Shown here: positions 41,732 through 47,859 of the stretch, one piece after another
Layout: each line of letters starts with the position of its first letter
Position numbering within the stretch: position 1 is the stretch's first letter
Source of the DNA: Mycolicibacterium fortuitum subsp. fortuitum
GTDB lineage: Bacteria > Actinomycetota > Actinomycetes > Mycobacteriales > Mycobacteriaceae
NCBI RefSeq assembly: GCF_022179545.1
Contig: NZ_AP025518.1
Span: forward strand, 5,394,001 to 5,458,000
DNA: 64,000 nt
Direction of reading: 5' to 3'
Notes under the pieces: model-generated
What the model saw: the letters and a program-made list of their open reading frames with translations, nothing else
The model's database searches: none
What the model was told of the DNA's origin: nothing
Program-made: the position numbers and the translations under genes

Positions 41732-42394
41732 TCACCGAGGCGGCCCGGCCGGCTCCCAGCACTGCATCGCGATGTCGAGCGCTTCACTGTCGAGCGCTTT
41801 CACCGGAATCGGGGACTGATCAGCGTGGTACCGCATGCCCTCCAGCAGGATCGCCACGTATCGGCGCCACAGTTCAGAGTCGACGTGGCCGGCGAATTCG
41901 CTGACCGTCCCGGCCAGAAGCCCGAACAGCGGCATGTCTGTCGATGACACCTCTGGACGTAGATACCCGTCGCCCTGGGCCCGCTCGACCAGCTTGGTCA
42001 AGACCGGGACTAGGCGCTCCTGGCAGGCCTTGACCCGGTCGCACCCGTAGGACTTGCTGAACGCGATTTCCCGCAATCCACGGTCAGTCGCGGTGATCTC
42101 GCACATCTTCTCGACGTACCACGCGAATCCCTGCCATGAATCTTCTTGTTCCAAAGCTGATTCAGCCAGCGCGGTGAGCTGCTCCATACCATCCACGAAG
42201 ATGGCCGCGATCAGCTCTTCCTTCGTGGCGAAACGGCGGTACACCGTGCCCACCCCGACATTGGCATAGCGCGCAACATCATTGAGCGTCGCCTCAAGAC
42301 CTTTCTCGGCAAACAGCTCCCTCGCAGCGTCGAGCACCCGCTGACGGTTGCGCTCTGCGTCCTTGCGCAGCGCGGGTCTTGTCTCCTCGGTCAT
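41732..42394 (-). CDS. TetR-family repressor of the MmpS/MmpL module
   Basis: 220 aa. N-terminal HTH: RVLDAARELFAEKGLEATLN, ANVGVGTVYRRFATKEEL, then a helical ligand-binding domain. Divergent from mmpS across 190 bp that hold a 27-bp palindrome. The arrangement parallels Rv0452 beside mmpS4/mmpL4. It probably represses both directions until an effector, perhaps an exported substrate or drug, binds. Confidence 0.88.
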   Translation of the reverse strand: MTEETRPALRKDAERNRQRVLDAARELFAEKGLEATLNDVARYANVGVGTVYRRFATKEELIAAIFVDGMEQLTALAESALEQEDSWQGFAWYVEKMCEITATDRGLREIAFSKSYGCDRVKACQERLVPVLTKLVERAQGDGYLRPEVSSTDMPLFGLLAGTVSEFAGHVDSELWRRYVAILLEGMRYHADQSPIPVKALDSEALDIAMQCWEPAGPPR

Positions 42395-42421
42395 ATCTCT
42401 CAGTCCAAAGTGAGCGGCGTC

Positions 42422-42448
42422 ATAAGTGGATTGATCCTATCCACTTAT
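42422..42448. promoter_or_regulatory. 27-bp palindromic TetR operator
   Basis: ATAAGTGGAT (42422-42431) and its exact reverse complement ATCCACTTAT (42439-42448) flank TGATCCT. It is 28 bp from the tetR start and about 136 bp from mmpS, in the only intergenic space of the module, and is AT-richer than its surroundings. Confidence 0.75.
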
Positions 42449-42584
42449 TCCGATAACTTTACCCCTCGAAGTGCGTAGGCCGCCTAATAGCAGGTTGTCG
42501 CGATCGCATCGAAACGTCGGGAGGCCCACCAGTGACACCTGTCCTCGATATGCCCGCCGTGGACGTCCCCTCGGGGCAGCCAAA

Positions 42585-43010
42585 ATGCTGAAGGCCATCC
42601 GCCGAATATGGCTCCCGGTACTGATCGTCATCGCCATGGGGGCCGGCGTTCTGATCGTGATGAACGTGCGCAAGGTCTTCGGCGCACACCCCGTGATCAT
42701 CACCGAAACCACGTCGGACAACGCCGAGGACTTCAACCCCAAGTTCGTGAAGTACGAAATCTTCGGTAACGGCGGCACTGCCGTCATCAACTACATGGAT
42801 CTCGAAGGCAAACCCCAGCGCACCGGAACTGTGCCGCTGCCATGGACTTTGACGCTGCAGACCACTTTGCCGTCAGTGCAGCCCAACATCATGGCCCAGG
42901 GCGACGGGGACAGCATCAGTTGCCGAGTCACTGTCGATGACGAGGTCAAAGAAGAGAGAACGGCTACTGGATTGAACGCACAGACCTTCTGCTTTGTGAA
43001 GGCAGCATGA
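42585..43010 (+). CDS. mmpS: MmpS family membrane protein
   Basis: 141 aa from ATG 42585 ([20 protein letters not shown]). One N-terminal helix anchors a periplasmic beta-sandwich with [51 protein letters not shown] and a conserved Cys pair ([20 protein letters not shown]). MmpS proteins assist MmpL transporters. The stop overlaps the mmpL start (ATGA), so the two are coupled. Confidence 0.93.
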
Positions 43011-45910
43011 GCGCGCCCACGGACGACACCCCGACCGACGCCATCCCGACCGGGCGCCACGCCGCCCCGCCACGACCACTGATCCCGCGATTCATCCGGG
43101 CGTTCGCCCTGCCGATCATGCTGATCTGGATCGTCATCGTCGCGCTGCTCAACACCGTCGTCCCGCAACTCGAGGTCGTCGGAAAGATGCGCGCGGTGTC
43201 GATGAGTCCCAACGACGCGCCGTCGATGATCGCCATCAAAGAGGTCGGCAAGAAGTTCCAGGAATACGACACCAGCAGCTCGGTGATGGTCGTGCTCGAA
43301 GGCGAAAAGCCGCTGGGCCTGGAAGCGCACATGTTCTACGACCAGATGGTCCGTGACCTGCGCGCTGACACCACCCATGTGCAGCACGTACAGGACTTCT
43401 GGGGCGACACGCTGACCGCCAAGGGCGCCCAGAGCCGTGACGGCAAGGCCGCCTACGTGCAGGTCTACATCGCCGGTGACCAGGGCGAGACGCTGGCCAA
43501 CGAGTCAGTCGAGGCGGTGCGGCGCATCGCCACCGAAAGCCCGGCCCCCGATGGCGTGAAGGCGTACGTCACCGGATCGGCGGCCTCCAGCACCGACCAG
43601 AACATCGTCGGCGACGAGAGCATGGAGCTGATCGAGCTCGTCACCTTCGGCGTCATCGCGGTGATGCTGCTCGGCGTCTACCGGTCGATCATCACCACCC
43701 TGATCGTGCTGCTGATGGTCGTGCTCGAACTGTCCGGCGCCCGTGGCCTCGTCGCGCTGCTGGGCTACCACAACTTCTTCGGTCTCACGACATTCGCGAC
43801 CAACATGCTGGTGACCTTGGCCATCGCCGCGGCCACCGACTACGCGATCTTCCTGATCGGCCGATATCAGGAAGCACGAAGAACCGGCGAGGACAAAGAA
43901 GCGGCCTACTACGACATGTTCCACGGCACGGCCCATGTCGTGCTCGCATCGGGCCTGACCATCGCCGGTGCGACGTTCTGCCTGCACTTCACCCGCCTGC
44001 CGTACTTCCAGACCATGGGCATTCCCCTGGCGATCGGAATGACGATGGTCGTCGCCATGGCACTGACCCTCGGGCCGGCCGTCATCTCGGTGGCCAGCCG
44101 GTTCGGCAAGACCCTTGAGCCCAAGCGGCATTCGAAGTCCCGCGGATGGCACCGGGTCGGTACCGCGACCGTCCGTTGGCCGGGCGCGATCCTGGTGTGC
44201 GCCATCGTGGCGGCGTTGGTCGGTCTGCTCGCCCTGCCCGGCTACCACACCACCTACAACGACCGCATCTTCCTGCCCAAGGACGTCGGGACGAACATCG
44301 GATACGACGCCGCGTTCCGGCACTTCTCGCAGGCCAAGATGAACCCGGACCTGATGATGATCGAGTCCGACCGTGATCTGCGGAACCCGGCGGATTTCCT
44401 GGTGATCGACAAGATCGCCAAGGCACTCAAGAACGTTCACGGTATCGCCCAGGTGCAGACCATCACCCGTCCCGACGGTGATCCGATCAAGCACTCGACG
44501 ATCCCGTACACGCTGGGCCAGAGCGGCACGACCCAGCTGATGAACAACGACTACCTGCAGAACAATCTGGACAACATCCTCAAGCAGGCCAACGATCTGC
44601 AAACCAGCATCGACTCGATGACCGAGATGATGAACATCCAGACCGAACTGGCCGCGGTGTCGCAGCGGATGGCCGACAAGATGAAGACCACGTCCGGCGA
44701 CATGTCCGAAGTACGCGACCACCTCGCCGATTTCGACGATTTCTTCCGGCCGATCCGCAACTACTTCTACTGGGAACCACACTGCTTCGACATCCCGGTC
44801 TGCTGGTCGATGCGGTCGATCTTCGAAAGCCTCGACGGCATCAACACGATGTCCGACGACTTCCAGGACCTGGTCCCCGAGATGCAGCGCATGGCCGACC
44901 TGATGCCGCGGATGGTCGCTGTGTTGCCCGCGCAGATCCAGACCATGAAGAACCAGAAGCAGATCCTGCTGAACCAGTATCAGGTGCAGAAGGCCCAACA
45001 GGACCAGACGATGGCGATGCAGAACACCGCCACCGCCATGAGCGAAGCGTTCGATACGGCCAAGAACGACGATTCGTTCTACCTGCCACCGGAGGCCTTC
45101 GGAACCGACGACTTCCAGCGGGGCCTCAAGCTGTTCATGTCGCCTGACGGACATGCGGTGCGGTTCACCATCATTCACCAGGGTGATCCGCTGACGCCGG
45201 AAGGCACCGCCCGCATCGCCCCGCTCAAGGTCGCGGCGACCGACGCGATCAAGGGCACACCGCTGGAGGGATCCAAGATCTACCTCGGCGGCAGCTCGGC
45301 GACGTACGCCGACATGCAGCAAGGCGCCGACTACGACCTGATCATCGTCGGTGCGGCAGCACTGATCCTGATCTTCATCATCATGCTGGTGCTCACCCGG
45401 GCCGTGGTGGCCTCAGCGGTGATCGTCGGCACGGTGGTGCTGAGTCTGGCTTCCGCGTTCGGACTTTCGGTCCTGCTGTGGCAGCACATCGTGGGAATCC
45501 CATTGCACTGGATGGTGATGCCGATGTCGATCATCGTCCTGCTGGCAGTAGGTGCGGACTACAACCTGCTGCTGGTCTCACGAATAAAGGAGGAGATCCA
45601 CGCCGGGCTCAAGACCGGGATCATCCGGGCCATGGTCGGCACCGGCGCCGTGGTCACCTCGGCAGGTTTGGTGTTCGCCTTCACCATGGGATCGATGGCA
45701 GTCAGCAGTTTGATCGTTATCGGTCAGGTCGGAACGACGATCGGCCTAGGCTTGTTGTTCGACACCCTCGTGGTTCGGTCGCTGATGACGCCGTCCATCG
45801 CCACGCTTCTCGGGCGGTGGTTCTGGTGGCCACAGCGGGTGCGCCAACGTCCGGTGCCGCAACCTTGGCCGAAGCCCGTTCAACGCGACCCCGAGGAGGC
45901 CCTGGCCTGA
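43007..45910 (+). CDS. mmpL: MmpL family RND transporter, MmpL4/5 type
   Basis: 967 aa. Two repeats of a helix plus periplasmic domain plus helix bundle. Proton-relay Asp-Tyr pairs: [17 protein letters not shown] in the first bundle and [17 protein letters not shown] in the second. The second periplasmic domain holds a long helical hairpin (about 495-690, rich in Gln/Met, such as [20 protein letters not shown]), as in MmpL4/MmpL5. A Trp/Pro/Arg-rich tail ends the protein. The MmpL4/5 type and its operon partners suggest siderophore or lipid/drug export. Confidence 0.93.
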
Positions 45911-46239
45911 TGAAGCGCCTGGTCATTGCCCTGTCAATCTGTGCCGCAACCGGTCTGGCGGTCTCGGCCCCGGCCTACGCCGACCCAGATACCGATTTCG
46001 CCAATGAGCTGCACACCTTCGGTATCTACGGGCAGCGTGACTACAACGCCTGGATCGCCAAGATCATGTGCAAGCGGTTGCACAACGGCGTCGACCACAC
46101 CGCCCAGGACTCGGTGAAGTTCGTCAAGAACCAGCTGGCCAAGGACAGCACCGACGCCCAGTCCTGGCAGTTCACCGGCACCGCCATCAACTACTACTGC
46201 CCCGATCAGCGCTTCGTCTACGAACAGGCCGCGCACTAA
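45910..46239 (+). CDS. DUF732 secreted protein
   Basis: 109 aa; ATG 45910 overlaps the mmpL stop by one base (TGATG). Sec signal peptide ending ...APAYA (about residue 24), then a small helical DUF732 domain (DPDTDFANELHTFGIYG) with two Cys (IMCKRL, NYYCPDQR) likely disulfide-bonded. DUF732 proteins occur in mycobacterial envelopes; some are haemophore-like. Cotranscription with mmpL suggests a periplasmic adaptor, inferred from position. Confidence 0.83.
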   Translation: MKRLVIALSICAATGLAVSAPAYADPDTDFANELHTFGIYGQRDYNAWIAKIMCKRLHNGVDHTAQDSVKFVKNQLAKDSTDAQSWQFTGTAINYYCPDQRFVYEQAAH

Positions 46240-46256
46240 CCAACCGTGGGAGCACC

Positions 46257-46721
46257 ATGTCCAACCGCACCAGCGTCAAAAACCTGATCCGCACCGGCGT
46301 GGCCACCTGCGCGGTGGCCGCCAGCCTGGCCGGCGCCGGCATCGCAAGCGCCGACGCCACCGACGACTACCCGATCCCCAACCGGATCCTGCGCACCCCC
46401 TGCACCGCCGAACAGATCATGGCCGCCGCCCGCGACGTCGAACCCGTCTACTACGAGCGCTACATGATCGACTACAACAACAAGCCCGTCGCCGACCAGC
46501 AAGGCGCCCAGGACCGCATCCACTGGTTCTTCTCCATGGACTACGCCGGCCGCCGCCAATACTCCGAGAACATGGCCACCAACGCCTTCTTCGAGAACAT
46601 GTCCTGGCGCTGGCCGAACTGGGCCAAGCTGTTCTTCAACAACAAGGGCGTCGCCGCCAACACCACCGACGTCTGCCAGAACTACCCACCCAACGACATG
46701 TCCGTCTGGGACTGGCACTGA
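46257..46721 (+). CDS. Rv0455c-like periplasmic protein (DUF5078)
   Basis: 154 aa from ATG 46257. Signal peptide ends near GIASADA; the mature part matches recalled Rv0455c strongly: VYYERYMIDYNN, IHWFFSMDYAGRRQYSE, AKLFFNNKGVA, CQNYPPNDMSVWDWH, with two Cys (TPCTAEQ, TDVCQNY) for the fold-locking disulfide. Rv0455c is needed for siderophore secretion with MmpS4/L4 and MmpS5/L5 and is encoded near mmpS4/L4. Here the homologue is the last gene of an mmpS-mmpL operon, 17 nt after the DUF732 gene. Confidence 0.88.
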   Translation: MSNRTSVKNLIRTGVATCAVAASLAGAGIASADATDDYPIPNRILRTPCTAEQIMAAARDVEPVYYERYMIDYNNKPVADQQGAQDRIHWFFSMDYAGRRQYSENMATNAFFENMSWRWPNWAKLFFNNKGVAANTTDVCQNYPPNDMSVWDWH

Positions 46722-46731
46722 CGCGAGCGGC

Positions 46732-47859
46732 TCAGTCCGGAAGCGAGTTGCTCAACCTTTCGGTGGCGGCGAGGTAGTCCTCGATGAACTCGCGGACCAC
46801 CTCGCGGGCCGGCTTGACCTTGTTCATCAAGCCAACGCCCTGACCGACGAAGTAGGTGGCCAGCGCCTGGGCGCCCGGGTGCCCCTGGGCGGCAAGCACA
46901 TCCACGCGCCGGATGACCGGCTCGGCCAGCATGTTCTGCAGCGGTAGCGGAAGGGTCTGGTGGCCACCGGGATTCGGTTGCCAGGCATCGGTCCACTCCG
47001 ATTTGAGCTGGCGGGCCGGCTTACCGGTCCGCCCGGTCGAGCGCACCGTGTCGCGCGAGGTCGCCTCCAGCATCTTCTGCACGGTGTGCGGCGCGGTCTC
47101 GGCCTCCTCGGTGGTCAGCCACACCGAGCCGGTCCAGGCGCCGGCCGCACCCATCGCCACCGCGGCCGCCATCTGCCGTCCCGTGACGATGCCGCCTGCG
47201 GCCAGCACCGGGATGTCGCTGCCGGCCTGCTCAAGCGTCTCAAGAACTTCCGGGACGAGCACCAGCGTCGACACCTCACCGCAGTGCCCGCCCGCCTCGG
47301 TGCCCTGCGCGATGATCAGGTCCACGCCGGCATGCACCTGCTTGAGCGCATGCTCGCGGGCACCCACCAGCGCCGCCACCGGAACTCCGCGCTCACGACC
47401 GGCCTCGATCATGTAATCCGGTGGCACCCCGAGCGCGTTGGCGATCAGCTTGATCGGGTGACTCATCGCCACGTCCAACAGCTCGCGGCCGGTGTCGCCG
47501 GACAACGACGAGCCTCCGAAGCGCTGCTTGGCCTCGGGCTCGATCCCGTGATCGGCCAGCAGTTGCGCCACGAACTCGCGGTACTCGGCAGGGATGCGGT
47601 CGGTGAGCTGTCCGCGCGACAGCTTCTCGCCCTTGCCCTCGAACTTCGCCGGCACGATGATGTCGGCGCCGTAGGGCTTGCCGCCGACCTGTTCGTCGAT
47701 CCAGGACAGCTCCTGGTCCAACTGCTCGGGTGTGTAGGCCGTGGCCCCCAGCACGCCGAAGCCGCCGGCGTTGGTCACCGCGGCGACCACGTCACGGCAG
47801 TGGCTGAACGCGAAGAGCGGAAAGTCGATACCGAACTGCTCACAGATGGCGGGTTTCAC
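46732..47859 (-). CDS. Nitronate monooxygenase / 2-nitropropane dioxygenase family
   Basis: 375 aa from GTG 47859. FMN-binding TIM barrel: PLFAFSHCRDVVAAVTNAGG (FMN contact), GTEAGGHCGEVSTLVLVPE (active-site His in GGHCG), VLAAGGIVTGRQMAAAVAMG. Enzymes here oxidise alkyl nitronates or act as enoyl-type flavoproteins in CoA thioester metabolism; the substrate cannot be told. A -35/-10 pair (TTGACA, 47891-47896; AATACT, 47866-47871) suggests a leaderless mRNA starting at the GTG. Confidence 0.83.
   Translation of the reverse strand: MKPAICEQFGIDFPLFAFSHCRDVVAAVTNAGGFGVLGATAYTPEQLDQELSWIDEQVGGKPYGADIIVPAKFEGKGEKLSRGQLTDRIPAEYREFVAQLLADHGIEPEAKQRFGGSSLSGDTGRELLDVAMSHPIKLIANALGVPPDYMIEAGRERGVPVAALVGAREHALKQVHAGVDLIIAQGTEAGGHCGEVSTLVLVPEVLETLEQAGSDIPVLAAGGIVTGRQMAAAVAMGAAGAWTGSVWLTTEEAETAPHTVQKMLEATSRDTVRSTGRTGKPARQLKSEWTDAWQPNPGGHQTLPLPLQNMLAEPVIRRVDVLAAQGHPGAQALATYFVGQGVGLMNKVKPAREVVREFIEDYLAATERLSNSLPD

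What the first reader, a model, noticed from the sequence alone, without database searches (positions are those of the whole stretch)
41732..46721. TetR-mmpS-mmpL-DUF732-Rv0455c-like operon: a self-contained MmpL export system
Four exported or membrane proteins (mmpS, mmpL, a disulfide-bearing DUF732 protein, an Rv0455c homologue) form one run with overlaps or 17-nt gaps, facing a TetR gene with an exact 27-bp palindrome between. Rv0455c is known to be needed for siderophore secretion with MmpS4/5-MmpL4/5. Here it belongs to the transporter operon, and the DUF732 protein between them may be an unrecognised periplasmic partner.
Basis: partly seen in the sequence, partly recalled or inferred. 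Interest (0 to 1): 0.7.

Follow-up and report, generated by a model that had tools for sequence, protein, structure and literature searches.

The report
Drug pump operon with two helpers
A mycobacterial export pump is encoded in one gene unit together with two small secreted proteins, one already known to be needed for exporting iron-carriers and one not found tied to such pumps in print, which points to a missing part of a pump family behind iron uptake and drug tolerance.

Summary
Five genes are as described: a TetR repressor facing mmpS-mmpL-DUF732-DUF5078 (the Rv0455c family). The "exact" 27-bp palindrome is really two perfect 10-bp arms around a 7-nt core. TetR, operator, mmpS and mmpL are the counterpart of a known unit (MSMEG_1380-1382; MAB_4384/mmpS5/mmpL5), and Rv0455c homologues near mmpS-mmpL are already published. 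What my searches did not find in print is the DUF732 partner. It is one subfamily, present in all 111 DUF5078-bearing genomes searched for it, within 6.5 kb of 128 of 185 DUF5078 copies, and equal to it in copy number in 95 of 111 genomes. Synteny identifies it with Rv0559c of M. tuberculosis. Published proteomics of bedaquiline-resistant Rv0678 mutants lists as its four most raised proteins MmpS5, MmpL5, Rv0559c and Rv0455c: the families encoded side by side here. Second, DUF5078 is homogenised between pump operons of one genome while adjoining mmpL genes stay diverged (nearest relative in the same genome: DUF5078 35 of 71, MmpL 2 of 71). Best reading: a TetR-controlled MmpS5/MmpL5-type exporter carrying its own pair of periplasmic accessory proteins. 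Physical contact and substrate are unproven.

The parts
41732..42394 (-). TetR-family repressor gene, divergent from the pump operon
   Evidence: Pfam TetR_N and TetR_C_43; best solved structure 5ovy, E=3.4e-91
42422..42448 (.). Operator-like inverted repeat, 10-bp perfect arms and 7-nt core
   Evidence: 20 of 23 bases equal to the putative M. smegmatis MSMEG_1381 operator printed in PMC7157563; best matches of 15-23 of 23 in the 30 TetR loci scanned, of 55 TetR places
42585..43010 (+). mmpS (MmpS5 type)
   Evidence: Pfam Mycobact_memb E=4e-48; best solved chain 9mvz_C MmpS5
43007..45910 (+). mmpL (MmpL5 type RND transporter), 967 aa
   Evidence: Pfam MMPL; TIGR00833 above cut-off; best solved chains 9dp6 and 9b46, MmpL5, residues 1-966
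45910..46239 (+). DUF732 secreted protein, Rv0559c-type subfamily, signal-peptide-like N-terminus (by eye) and two conserved Cys; overlaps the mmpL stop by 1 nt
   Evidence: Pfam DUF732; subfamily alignment A2; synteny of a relative with the Rv0558-Rv0561c region
46257..46721 (+). DUF5078 (Rv0455c family) secreted protein with the conserved cysteines C49 and C140
   Evidence: Pfam PF16877 E=1.5e-60; MS3494 structure 7ref E=1.5e-72; alignment A1
45988..46722 (+). Tract nearly identical (724 of 735) to the second cassette of the same genome (G000:C1:3346444-3347178 = L009:8444-9178): mature DUF732, spacer and all of DUF5078, ending at the DUF5078 stop codon

Best explanation
This is a TetR-repressed MmpS5/MmpL5-type RND exporter operon (the counterpart of MSMEG_1380-1381-1382 and MAB_4384/4383c/4382c) that has in addition two secreted partner genes: an Rv0559c-family DUF732 protein and an Rv0455c-family DUF5078 protein. 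Proposed working: when an inducer releases TetR from the inverted repeat, all four proteins are made in one coupled unit. MmpS and MmpL form the inner-membrane pump with its periplasmic coiled-coil stalk; DUF5078 and DUF732, exported through signal peptides and each probably closed by one disulfide, act on the periplasmic side of that pump, steadying the stalk or linking it to the outer layer, so that siderophores or drug-like molecules leave the cell. Shown here: gene identities, operon layout, overlapping junctions, association of the two small proteins across the genus, identity of DUF732 with Rv0559c by synteny, and homogenisation of the DUF5078 gene between pump operons. Inferred: co-transcription, contact with the pump, mechanism and substrate.
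For: Operon: overlaps 4 and 1 nt, gap 17 nt; of 85 distinct mmpL-to-DUF732 junctions, taking the in-frame start nearest the mmpL stop, 70 overlap by 1-4 nt, 13 have gaps of 0-30 nt and 2 neither. Known core: TetR best match 5ovy, MmpL 9dp6/9b46, operator 20 of 23 as in M. smegmatis, same design as the 27-bp site bound by MAB_4384 in gel shifts. DUF5078 is needed for siderophore secretion in M. tuberculosis (PMC9042941, passages) and is stated to be needed for bedaquiline resistance and modelled on the side of the MmpL5 coiled coil (PMC12501195, passages). The DUF732 subfamily is present in 60 of 60 and 52 of 52 genomes, one genome (G098) being in both, all chosen because they have DUF5078; 128 of 185 DUF5078 copies have it within 6.5 kb, against roughly 0.2% expected per copy; copy numbers are equal in 95 of 111 genomes, Spearman 0.89. 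Rv0559c identity: L294 has a UbiE-type methyltransferase, DUF732, a SAM methyltransferase and an FAD-binding reductase-like protein in the Rv0558-Rv0561c order. Proteomics of Rv0678 mutants: MmpS5 18.7x, MmpL5 5.9x, Rv0559c 5.5x, Rv0455c 3.3x as the four top proteins (PMC4092087, passage with Table 4). The promoter of Rv0560c, whose operon is suggested to include Rv0559c, is induced by salicylate and about 3-fold by iron depletion (PMC3317779, passages).
Against: No direct interaction evidence. 57 of 185 DUF5078 copies have no DUF732 of this subfamily within 6.5 kb; in 29 of the 58 single-copy genomes checked the two genes are 100 kb or more apart. The iron TnSeq study found rv0455c but its main text does not mention rv0559c (PMC7058343). 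The TetR unit often lacks the cassette: 30 of 55 TetR homologues have no DUF5078 within 6.5 kb, including 7 of 7 at 70-84% identity, so the core pump seems able to do without a local copy; I did not check that every one of these 55 faces an mmpS-mmpL pair. The rise of Rv0559c in Rv0678 mutants could be a stress or regulatory effect, and it was weaker in the second strain (1.9x; Rv0455c 1.4x). The presence test outside the genus is confounded: both families are in the same 22 of 200 genomes of the order, all of the genus.
Confidence: 0.62

Rival explanations
1. DUF732 (Rv0559c family) is a co-regulated secreted stress protein that travels with the pump genes but does not act on the pump; only MmpS, MmpL and DUF5078 form the export system.
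For: In single-copy genomes DUF732 and DUF5078 are often 100 kb or more apart (29 of 58). Rv0559c is suggested to share an operon with a salicylate-induced methyltransferase gene, and the pair responds to rifampicin and isoniazid (review passage, PMC6391361). The iron TnSeq main text does not mention it.
Against: It would have to be placed beside pump operons by chance in several settings: between mmpL and DUF5078, upstream of mmpS, or on the far side of mmpS. Copy numbers track, and its protein rises with MmpS5, MmpL5 and Rv0455c in Rv0678 mutants.
Confidence: 0.2
2. The operon exports a lipid or other envelope molecule rather than siderophores or drugs, and the cassette serves that substrate.
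For: No substrate is known for this locus. MSMEG_1381/1382, the closest characterised pump, is reported not to complement bedaquiline sensitivity (PMC12501195). DUF5078 homologues of species described as siderophore-deficient (M. leprae, M. haemophilum) still restore function (PMC9042941).
Against: The MmpL matches the MmpL5/MmpL4 group; the M. smegmatis counterpart gives resistance to imidazotetrazines by efflux and the M. abscessus one is linked to thiacetazone-derivative resistance.
Confidence: 0.15
3. The within-genome homogenisation of DUF5078 is a neutral by-product of ectopic recombination between short conserved genes and says nothing about function.
For: Gene conversion favours similar sequence and DUF5078 is strongly conserved; in all 24 pairs examined (those of 91% identity or more) the tract ends 1-14 nt after the matched domain, where homology ends.
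Against: mmpL pairs at 84-87% identity right beside homogenised genes (G314, G208, G116, G210, G034) stay diverged, and the pattern recurs in 16 of 24 genomes. Neither rules out neutrality.
Confidence: 0.4

Closest known systems
M. smegmatis MSMEG_1380-1381-1382 (TetR-mmpS5-mmpL5)
   Same: Divergent TetR, an inverted-repeat operator with 20 of 23 identical bases, and an MmpL whose best solved match is M. smegmatis MmpL5, 9b46, cloned from MSMEG_1382.
   Different: The window operon goes on with DUF732-DUF5078. TetR homologues at 70-84% identity have no DUF5078 within 6.5 kb (0 of 7). M. smegmatis itself was not fetched by name.
M. abscessus MAB_4384 / MAB_4383c-MAB_4382c (MmpS5/MmpL5)
   Same: TetR facing mmpS5-mmpL5 with a 27-bp palindromic operator shown by gel shift (PMC5895659, passages); the window TetR matches 5ovy (that 5ovy is MAB_4384 is recalled).
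   Different: The passages I read describe no DUF732-DUF5078 tail; M. abscessus was not fetched by name.
Rv0455c with MmpS4/L4 and MmpS5/L5 (siderophore secretion)
   Same: DUF5078 protein with the two cysteines of the published cinch fold (C49, C140 in MSMEG_3494; same numbers here); published as always neighbouring mmpS-mmpL.
   Different: Here it is the last gene of the transporter operon itself and is preceded by DUF732; the paper has 0 occurrences of DUF732 in its main text.
Rv0559c (conserved secreted protein, M. tuberculosis)
   Same: Same DUF732 subfamily by profile and synteny; raised together with MmpS5, MmpL5 and Rv0455c in Rv0678 mutants.
   Different: In M. tuberculosis it lies in the Rv0560c region, away from pump genes; its function is called unknown in the two papers where I saw it discussed.

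Membership tests
TetR-regulated MmpS5/MmpL5 efflux unit (MSMEG_1380-1382, MAB_4384 type) | Divergent TetR of the MAB_4384 type | tested here: met
   5ovy E=3.4e-91 over residues 7-217; the link of 5ovy to MAB_4384 is recalled
TetR-regulated MmpS5/MmpL5 efflux unit (MSMEG_1380-1382, MAB_4384 type) | 27-bp inverted-repeat operator between the divergent genes | tested here: met
   42422-42448; 20 of 23 bases as in M. smegmatis
TetR-regulated MmpS5/MmpL5 efflux unit (MSMEG_1380-1382, MAB_4384 type) | MmpS5 and MmpL5 proteins | tested here: met
   9mvz_C MmpS5, 9dp6 and 9b46 MmpL5
TetR-regulated MmpS5/MmpL5 efflux unit (MSMEG_1380-1382, MAB_4384 type) | Repressor mutants raise pump expression and drug tolerance | not testable with these tools
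   Seen in print for M. smegmatis and M. abscessus only
Rv0455c / DUF5078 family | DUF5078 domain | tested here: met
   PF16877, 203 bits against a cut-off of 27
Rv0455c / DUF5078 family | Two conserved cysteines of the cinch disulfide | tested here: met
   C49 and C140 invariant in 14 sequences; published C49-C140 in MSMEG_3494
Rv0455c / DUF5078 family | Required for siderophore secretion | not testable with these tools
   Shown in M. tuberculosis, with conserved function in M. smegmatis, not for this locus
Rv0559c-type DUF732 subfamily | Profile match clearly above other DUF732 paralogues | tested here: met
   In 200 genomes of the order, cut at 1e-6: 26 matches at E of 4.3e-27 or better and 10 at 2.5e-9 to 8.3e-7, none between; the few matches between are partial
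Rv0559c-type DUF732 subfamily | Orthology with Rv0559c by gene neighbourhood | tested here: met
Tripartite pump with an outer-membrane component | A TolC-like or other outer-membrane channel | not tested
   No outer-membrane candidate was looked for beyond the five genes; PMC12501195 calls the partner unknown

The most novel reading that the evidence does not exclude
DUF732 and DUF5078 are the missing periplasmic adaptor pair of MmpL4/MmpL5-type pumps: they dock the methionine-lined coiled-coil stalk to one shared, still unknown outer-membrane exit. Because all pumps of a cell must fit that same exit, the DUF5078 gene (and in part the mature DUF732) is kept identical among paralogous operons by gene conversion, while each MmpS/MmpL diverges for its own substrate and each operon keeps its own regulator. 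The window operon is then the gene-fusion-like clue that names Rv0559c as a pump component in tuberculosis.
Probability: 0.28. Interest if true: 0.9.

Novelty: new variant of a known kind. Interest (0 to 1): 0.72.

Why it matters
MmpS5/MmpL5 pumps export siderophores and are behind tolerance to bedaquiline and clofazimine; two recent structural papers say that an outer-membrane partner is still unknown. This operon puts a second, uncharacterised secreted protein beside the pump and the Rv0455c family, and ties it to Rv0559c, whose transposon mutant grows poorly in macrophages (PMC5405230). A partner that can be deleted and purified in M. smegmatis makes the question directly testable, and the homogenisation of DUF5078 gives a natural handle on which surface must stay constant.

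Tried and rejected
Iron regulation by IdeR at the window: a 19-bp consensus (recalled) was scanned in 450 bp upstream of cassettes and of mmpS; the window, L009 and L010 reached only 10-11 of 19, where most random pieces of the same loci lie at 9-11. A second TetR site at other pump loci of the genome: none at 17 of 23 or better in the five stretches scanned, L009-L013. A solved relative of DUF732: one hit at E=0.4 by sequence and three at 0.12-0.24 by profile, taken as chance. NCBIfam gave no family for mmpS, DUF732 or DUF5078. Promoter and terminator scans of 42300-46900: no promoter-like site, 4 terminator-like sites against 2.7 expected. Considered and rejected: that the DUF5078 identity within genomes is protein-level purifying selection only, because synonymous divergence is 0-0.23 in the six homogenised genomes with a value, against 0.68-0.75 for mmpL in the same pairs. 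Considered and left open: neutral gene conversion. The MAB_2299c unit of M. abscessus was considered first; the MAB_4384 type fits better.

Full report
What is there. The window lies in a 6.4-Mb single-contig mycobacterial genome; the name is not given, and the nearest named records by DUF5078 are M. peregrinum and other Mycolicibacterium, the window's own record possibly being left out. TetR runs leftward; mmpS, mmpL, DUF732 and DUF5078 run rightward with overlaps of 4 and 1 nt and a gap of 17 nt. The next large frame is convergent and ends 10 bp after the DUF5078 stop. The inverted repeat has perfect 10-bp arms and a 7-nt core, not 27 exact bases.

What was already known. The first three genes and the operator are a known unit. 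The MmpL best matches the solved M. smegmatis MmpL5 entries 9dp6 and 9b46 over residues 1-966 (9b46 is MSMEG_1382), MmpS matches 9mvz_C, and TetR matches 5ovy. The operator shares 20 of 23 bases with the putative MSMEG_1381 operator (PMC7157563, passages; count), and the site bound by MAB_4384 is also a 27-bp palindrome of two degenerate arms (PMC5895659, passages). Rv0455c homologues are published as always neighbouring mmpS4-mmpL4 or mmpS5-mmpL5 (PMC9042941, passages).

How general the layout is. DUF5078 occurs in 393 of 395 genomes of the genus. I looked at contexts in three samples: 80 named loci, the best matches to an alignment led by the window protein; 80 regions from 28 genomes that I chose for having several copies; and 60 regions from single-copy genomes. 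The samples are not random and share a few strains (equal contig lengths). DUF732 stands directly upstream of DUF5078 in 57 of 81, 68 of 82 (two genes counted twice) and 22 of 60 cases. DUF5078 follows mmpL on the same strand in 38 of 81, 60 of 82 and 17 of 60; in 28 of 60 single-copy cases it is convergent with mmpL. Of 85 distinct mmpL-to-DUF732 junctions 70 overlap by 1-4 nt, taking the start nearest the mmpL stop; where DUF5078 follows mmpL directly it is 16 of 23. Where DUF732 is not next to DUF5078 it sometimes lies on the far side of mmpS. The TetR version is one form of this: 55 TetR homologues in 49 of 80 genomes, 25 of 55 with DUF5078 within 6.5 kb; 9 of 9 at 85% identity or more, 0 of 7 at 70-84%, 16 of 39 below 70%.

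The DUF732 partner. The cassette DUF732 proteins form one subfamily with a conserved GIYG-Q/P-K/R-DYNAW stretch and two cysteines. A profile of 48 of them hits 60 of 60 and 52 of 52 genomes, 111 different ones, all chosen for having DUF5078; in 200 genomes of the order it and DUF5078 hit the same 22, all in the genus. That last agreement follows genus membership and is weak evidence. Stronger: over the 111 genomes 128 of 185 DUF5078 copies have it within 6.5 kb, and copy numbers are equal in 95 genomes, Spearman 0.89, uncorrected for relatedness. In 29 of 58 single-copy genomes it is 100 kb or more away. In one of these (G349, locus L294) its neighbours are a UbiE-type methyltransferase, a SAM methyltransferase and an FAD-binding protein, the Rv0558-Rv0559c-Rv0560c-Rv0561c order known from M. 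tuberculosis. I therefore equate the subfamily with Rv0559c.

Independent support from print. In bedaquiline-resistant Rv0678 mutants the four most raised proteins were MmpS5 (18.7x), MmpL5 (5.9x), Rv0559c (5.5x) and Rv0455c (3.3x); in the second strain 4.6, 2.3, 1.9 and 1.4 (PMC4092087, passage with Table 4). The authors called the function of the last two unknown. The Rv0560c promoter, in an operon suggested to include Rv0559c, is induced by salicylate and about 3-fold by iron depletion (PMC3317779, passages). An rv0559c transposon mutant grows poorly in macrophages (PMC5405230, passages). What is in print: Rv0559c occurs in 11 papers of the library, of which I saw passages of four and the listing of seven; Rv0559c with MmpL5 and Rv0455c occurs in one, PMC4092087; MmpL with DUF732 occurs in one, seen as a listing and on another subject. 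The library holds open-licence papers only. Against: the main text of the iron TnSeq study names rv0455c but not rv0559c (PMC7058343).

Homogenised cassettes. The genome has a second mmpS-mmpL locus (L009) whose cassette lies upstream of mmpS; its MmpL is closest to the solved MmpL4 entry 9b43 of M. smegmatis. Over 735 bp, 45988-46722, the two cassettes differ at 11 positions, with one difference in the last 509 bases up to the stop, while mmpS-mmpL is 73% identical. In 12 genomes with both locus types (the window's and 11) the MmpL tree separates the types with full support, but the DUF5078 tree rejects that split (log-likelihood difference 176.8, AU p 8e-168, one set of identical rows left free) and needs 8 changes. 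In seven of the 12 the two DUF5078 copies are 94-100% identical (window, peregrinum, DL99, URHD0025, senegalense, porcinum, houstonense), against medians of 87 and 90% between species at the same locus; in the other five they are 81-91%, and in the tree the TetR-locus copies of those five group together. Synonymous divergence of DUF5078 is 0-0.23 in six of the seven (one not computable) against 0.68-0.75 for mmpL. In the wider set, the nearest relative lies in the same genome for 35 of 71 DUF5078 copies and 2 of 71 MmpL, 16 of 53 DUF732 and 10 of 70 MmpS; 16 of 24 genomes show it for DUF5078. The tracts all end at the gene's end but start at different places, in five of 24 pairs running up into mmpL genes that are themselves 84-87% identical. 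I read this as repeated gene conversion. Whether it is selected or neutral is open.

Mechanism and limits. The best-supported account is a TetR-controlled MmpS5/MmpL5-type exporter with its own two periplasmic accessory proteins. DUF5078 is experimentally tied to such pumps elsewhere and has been modelled on the MmpL5 coiled coil (PMC12501195, passages). DUF732 is tied by layout, copy number and co-abundance only. Signal peptides were read by eye. Substrate, binding and regulation at this locus are untested.

Noticed in passing
L010:6044-6959 (G000:C1 about 1389044-1389959): A third DUF732-DUF5078 pair in the same genome, on the minus strand 5-6 kb from an mmpS-mmpL pair and about 76% identical to the other two in DUF5078.
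   Followed up: partly
genomes G277, G321, G331, G357, G367: Two of 395 genomes lack DUF5078 at the threshold and three have only weak matches (best E 2.5e-6, 4.5e-17, 5.7e-15), perhaps lineages losing the system, or split genes.
   Followed up: no
G299:C1:5297494-5297893: The TetR-operon DUF732 of this genome matches in two separate partial stretches just before DUF5078, as if frameshifted.
   Followed up: no
L078 and L088: Contigs filed under an Acidobacteria MAG and a Bifidobacterium breve MAG carry mycobacterial-type DUF5078-mmpSL loci, probably misbinned.
   Followed up: no
L184, L187, L206, L207, L208 (about 50 bp upstream of mmpS): A sequence resembling an IdeR iron box (14-15 of 19, consensus recalled) lies upstream of mmpS in five loci whose mmpS-mmpL-DUF5078 lacks DUF732; 1 of 452 random pieces reached 14 and none 15. 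The five are near-identical, so probably one lineage.
   Followed up: no
G179, G260, G364 (loci L124-L127, L159-L160, L164-L166): In six pairs from these genomes the near-identical tract starts 40-78 nt into the matched DUF5078 domain, near the end of the signal peptide, so little more than mature DUF5078 seems exchanged.
   Followed up: partly
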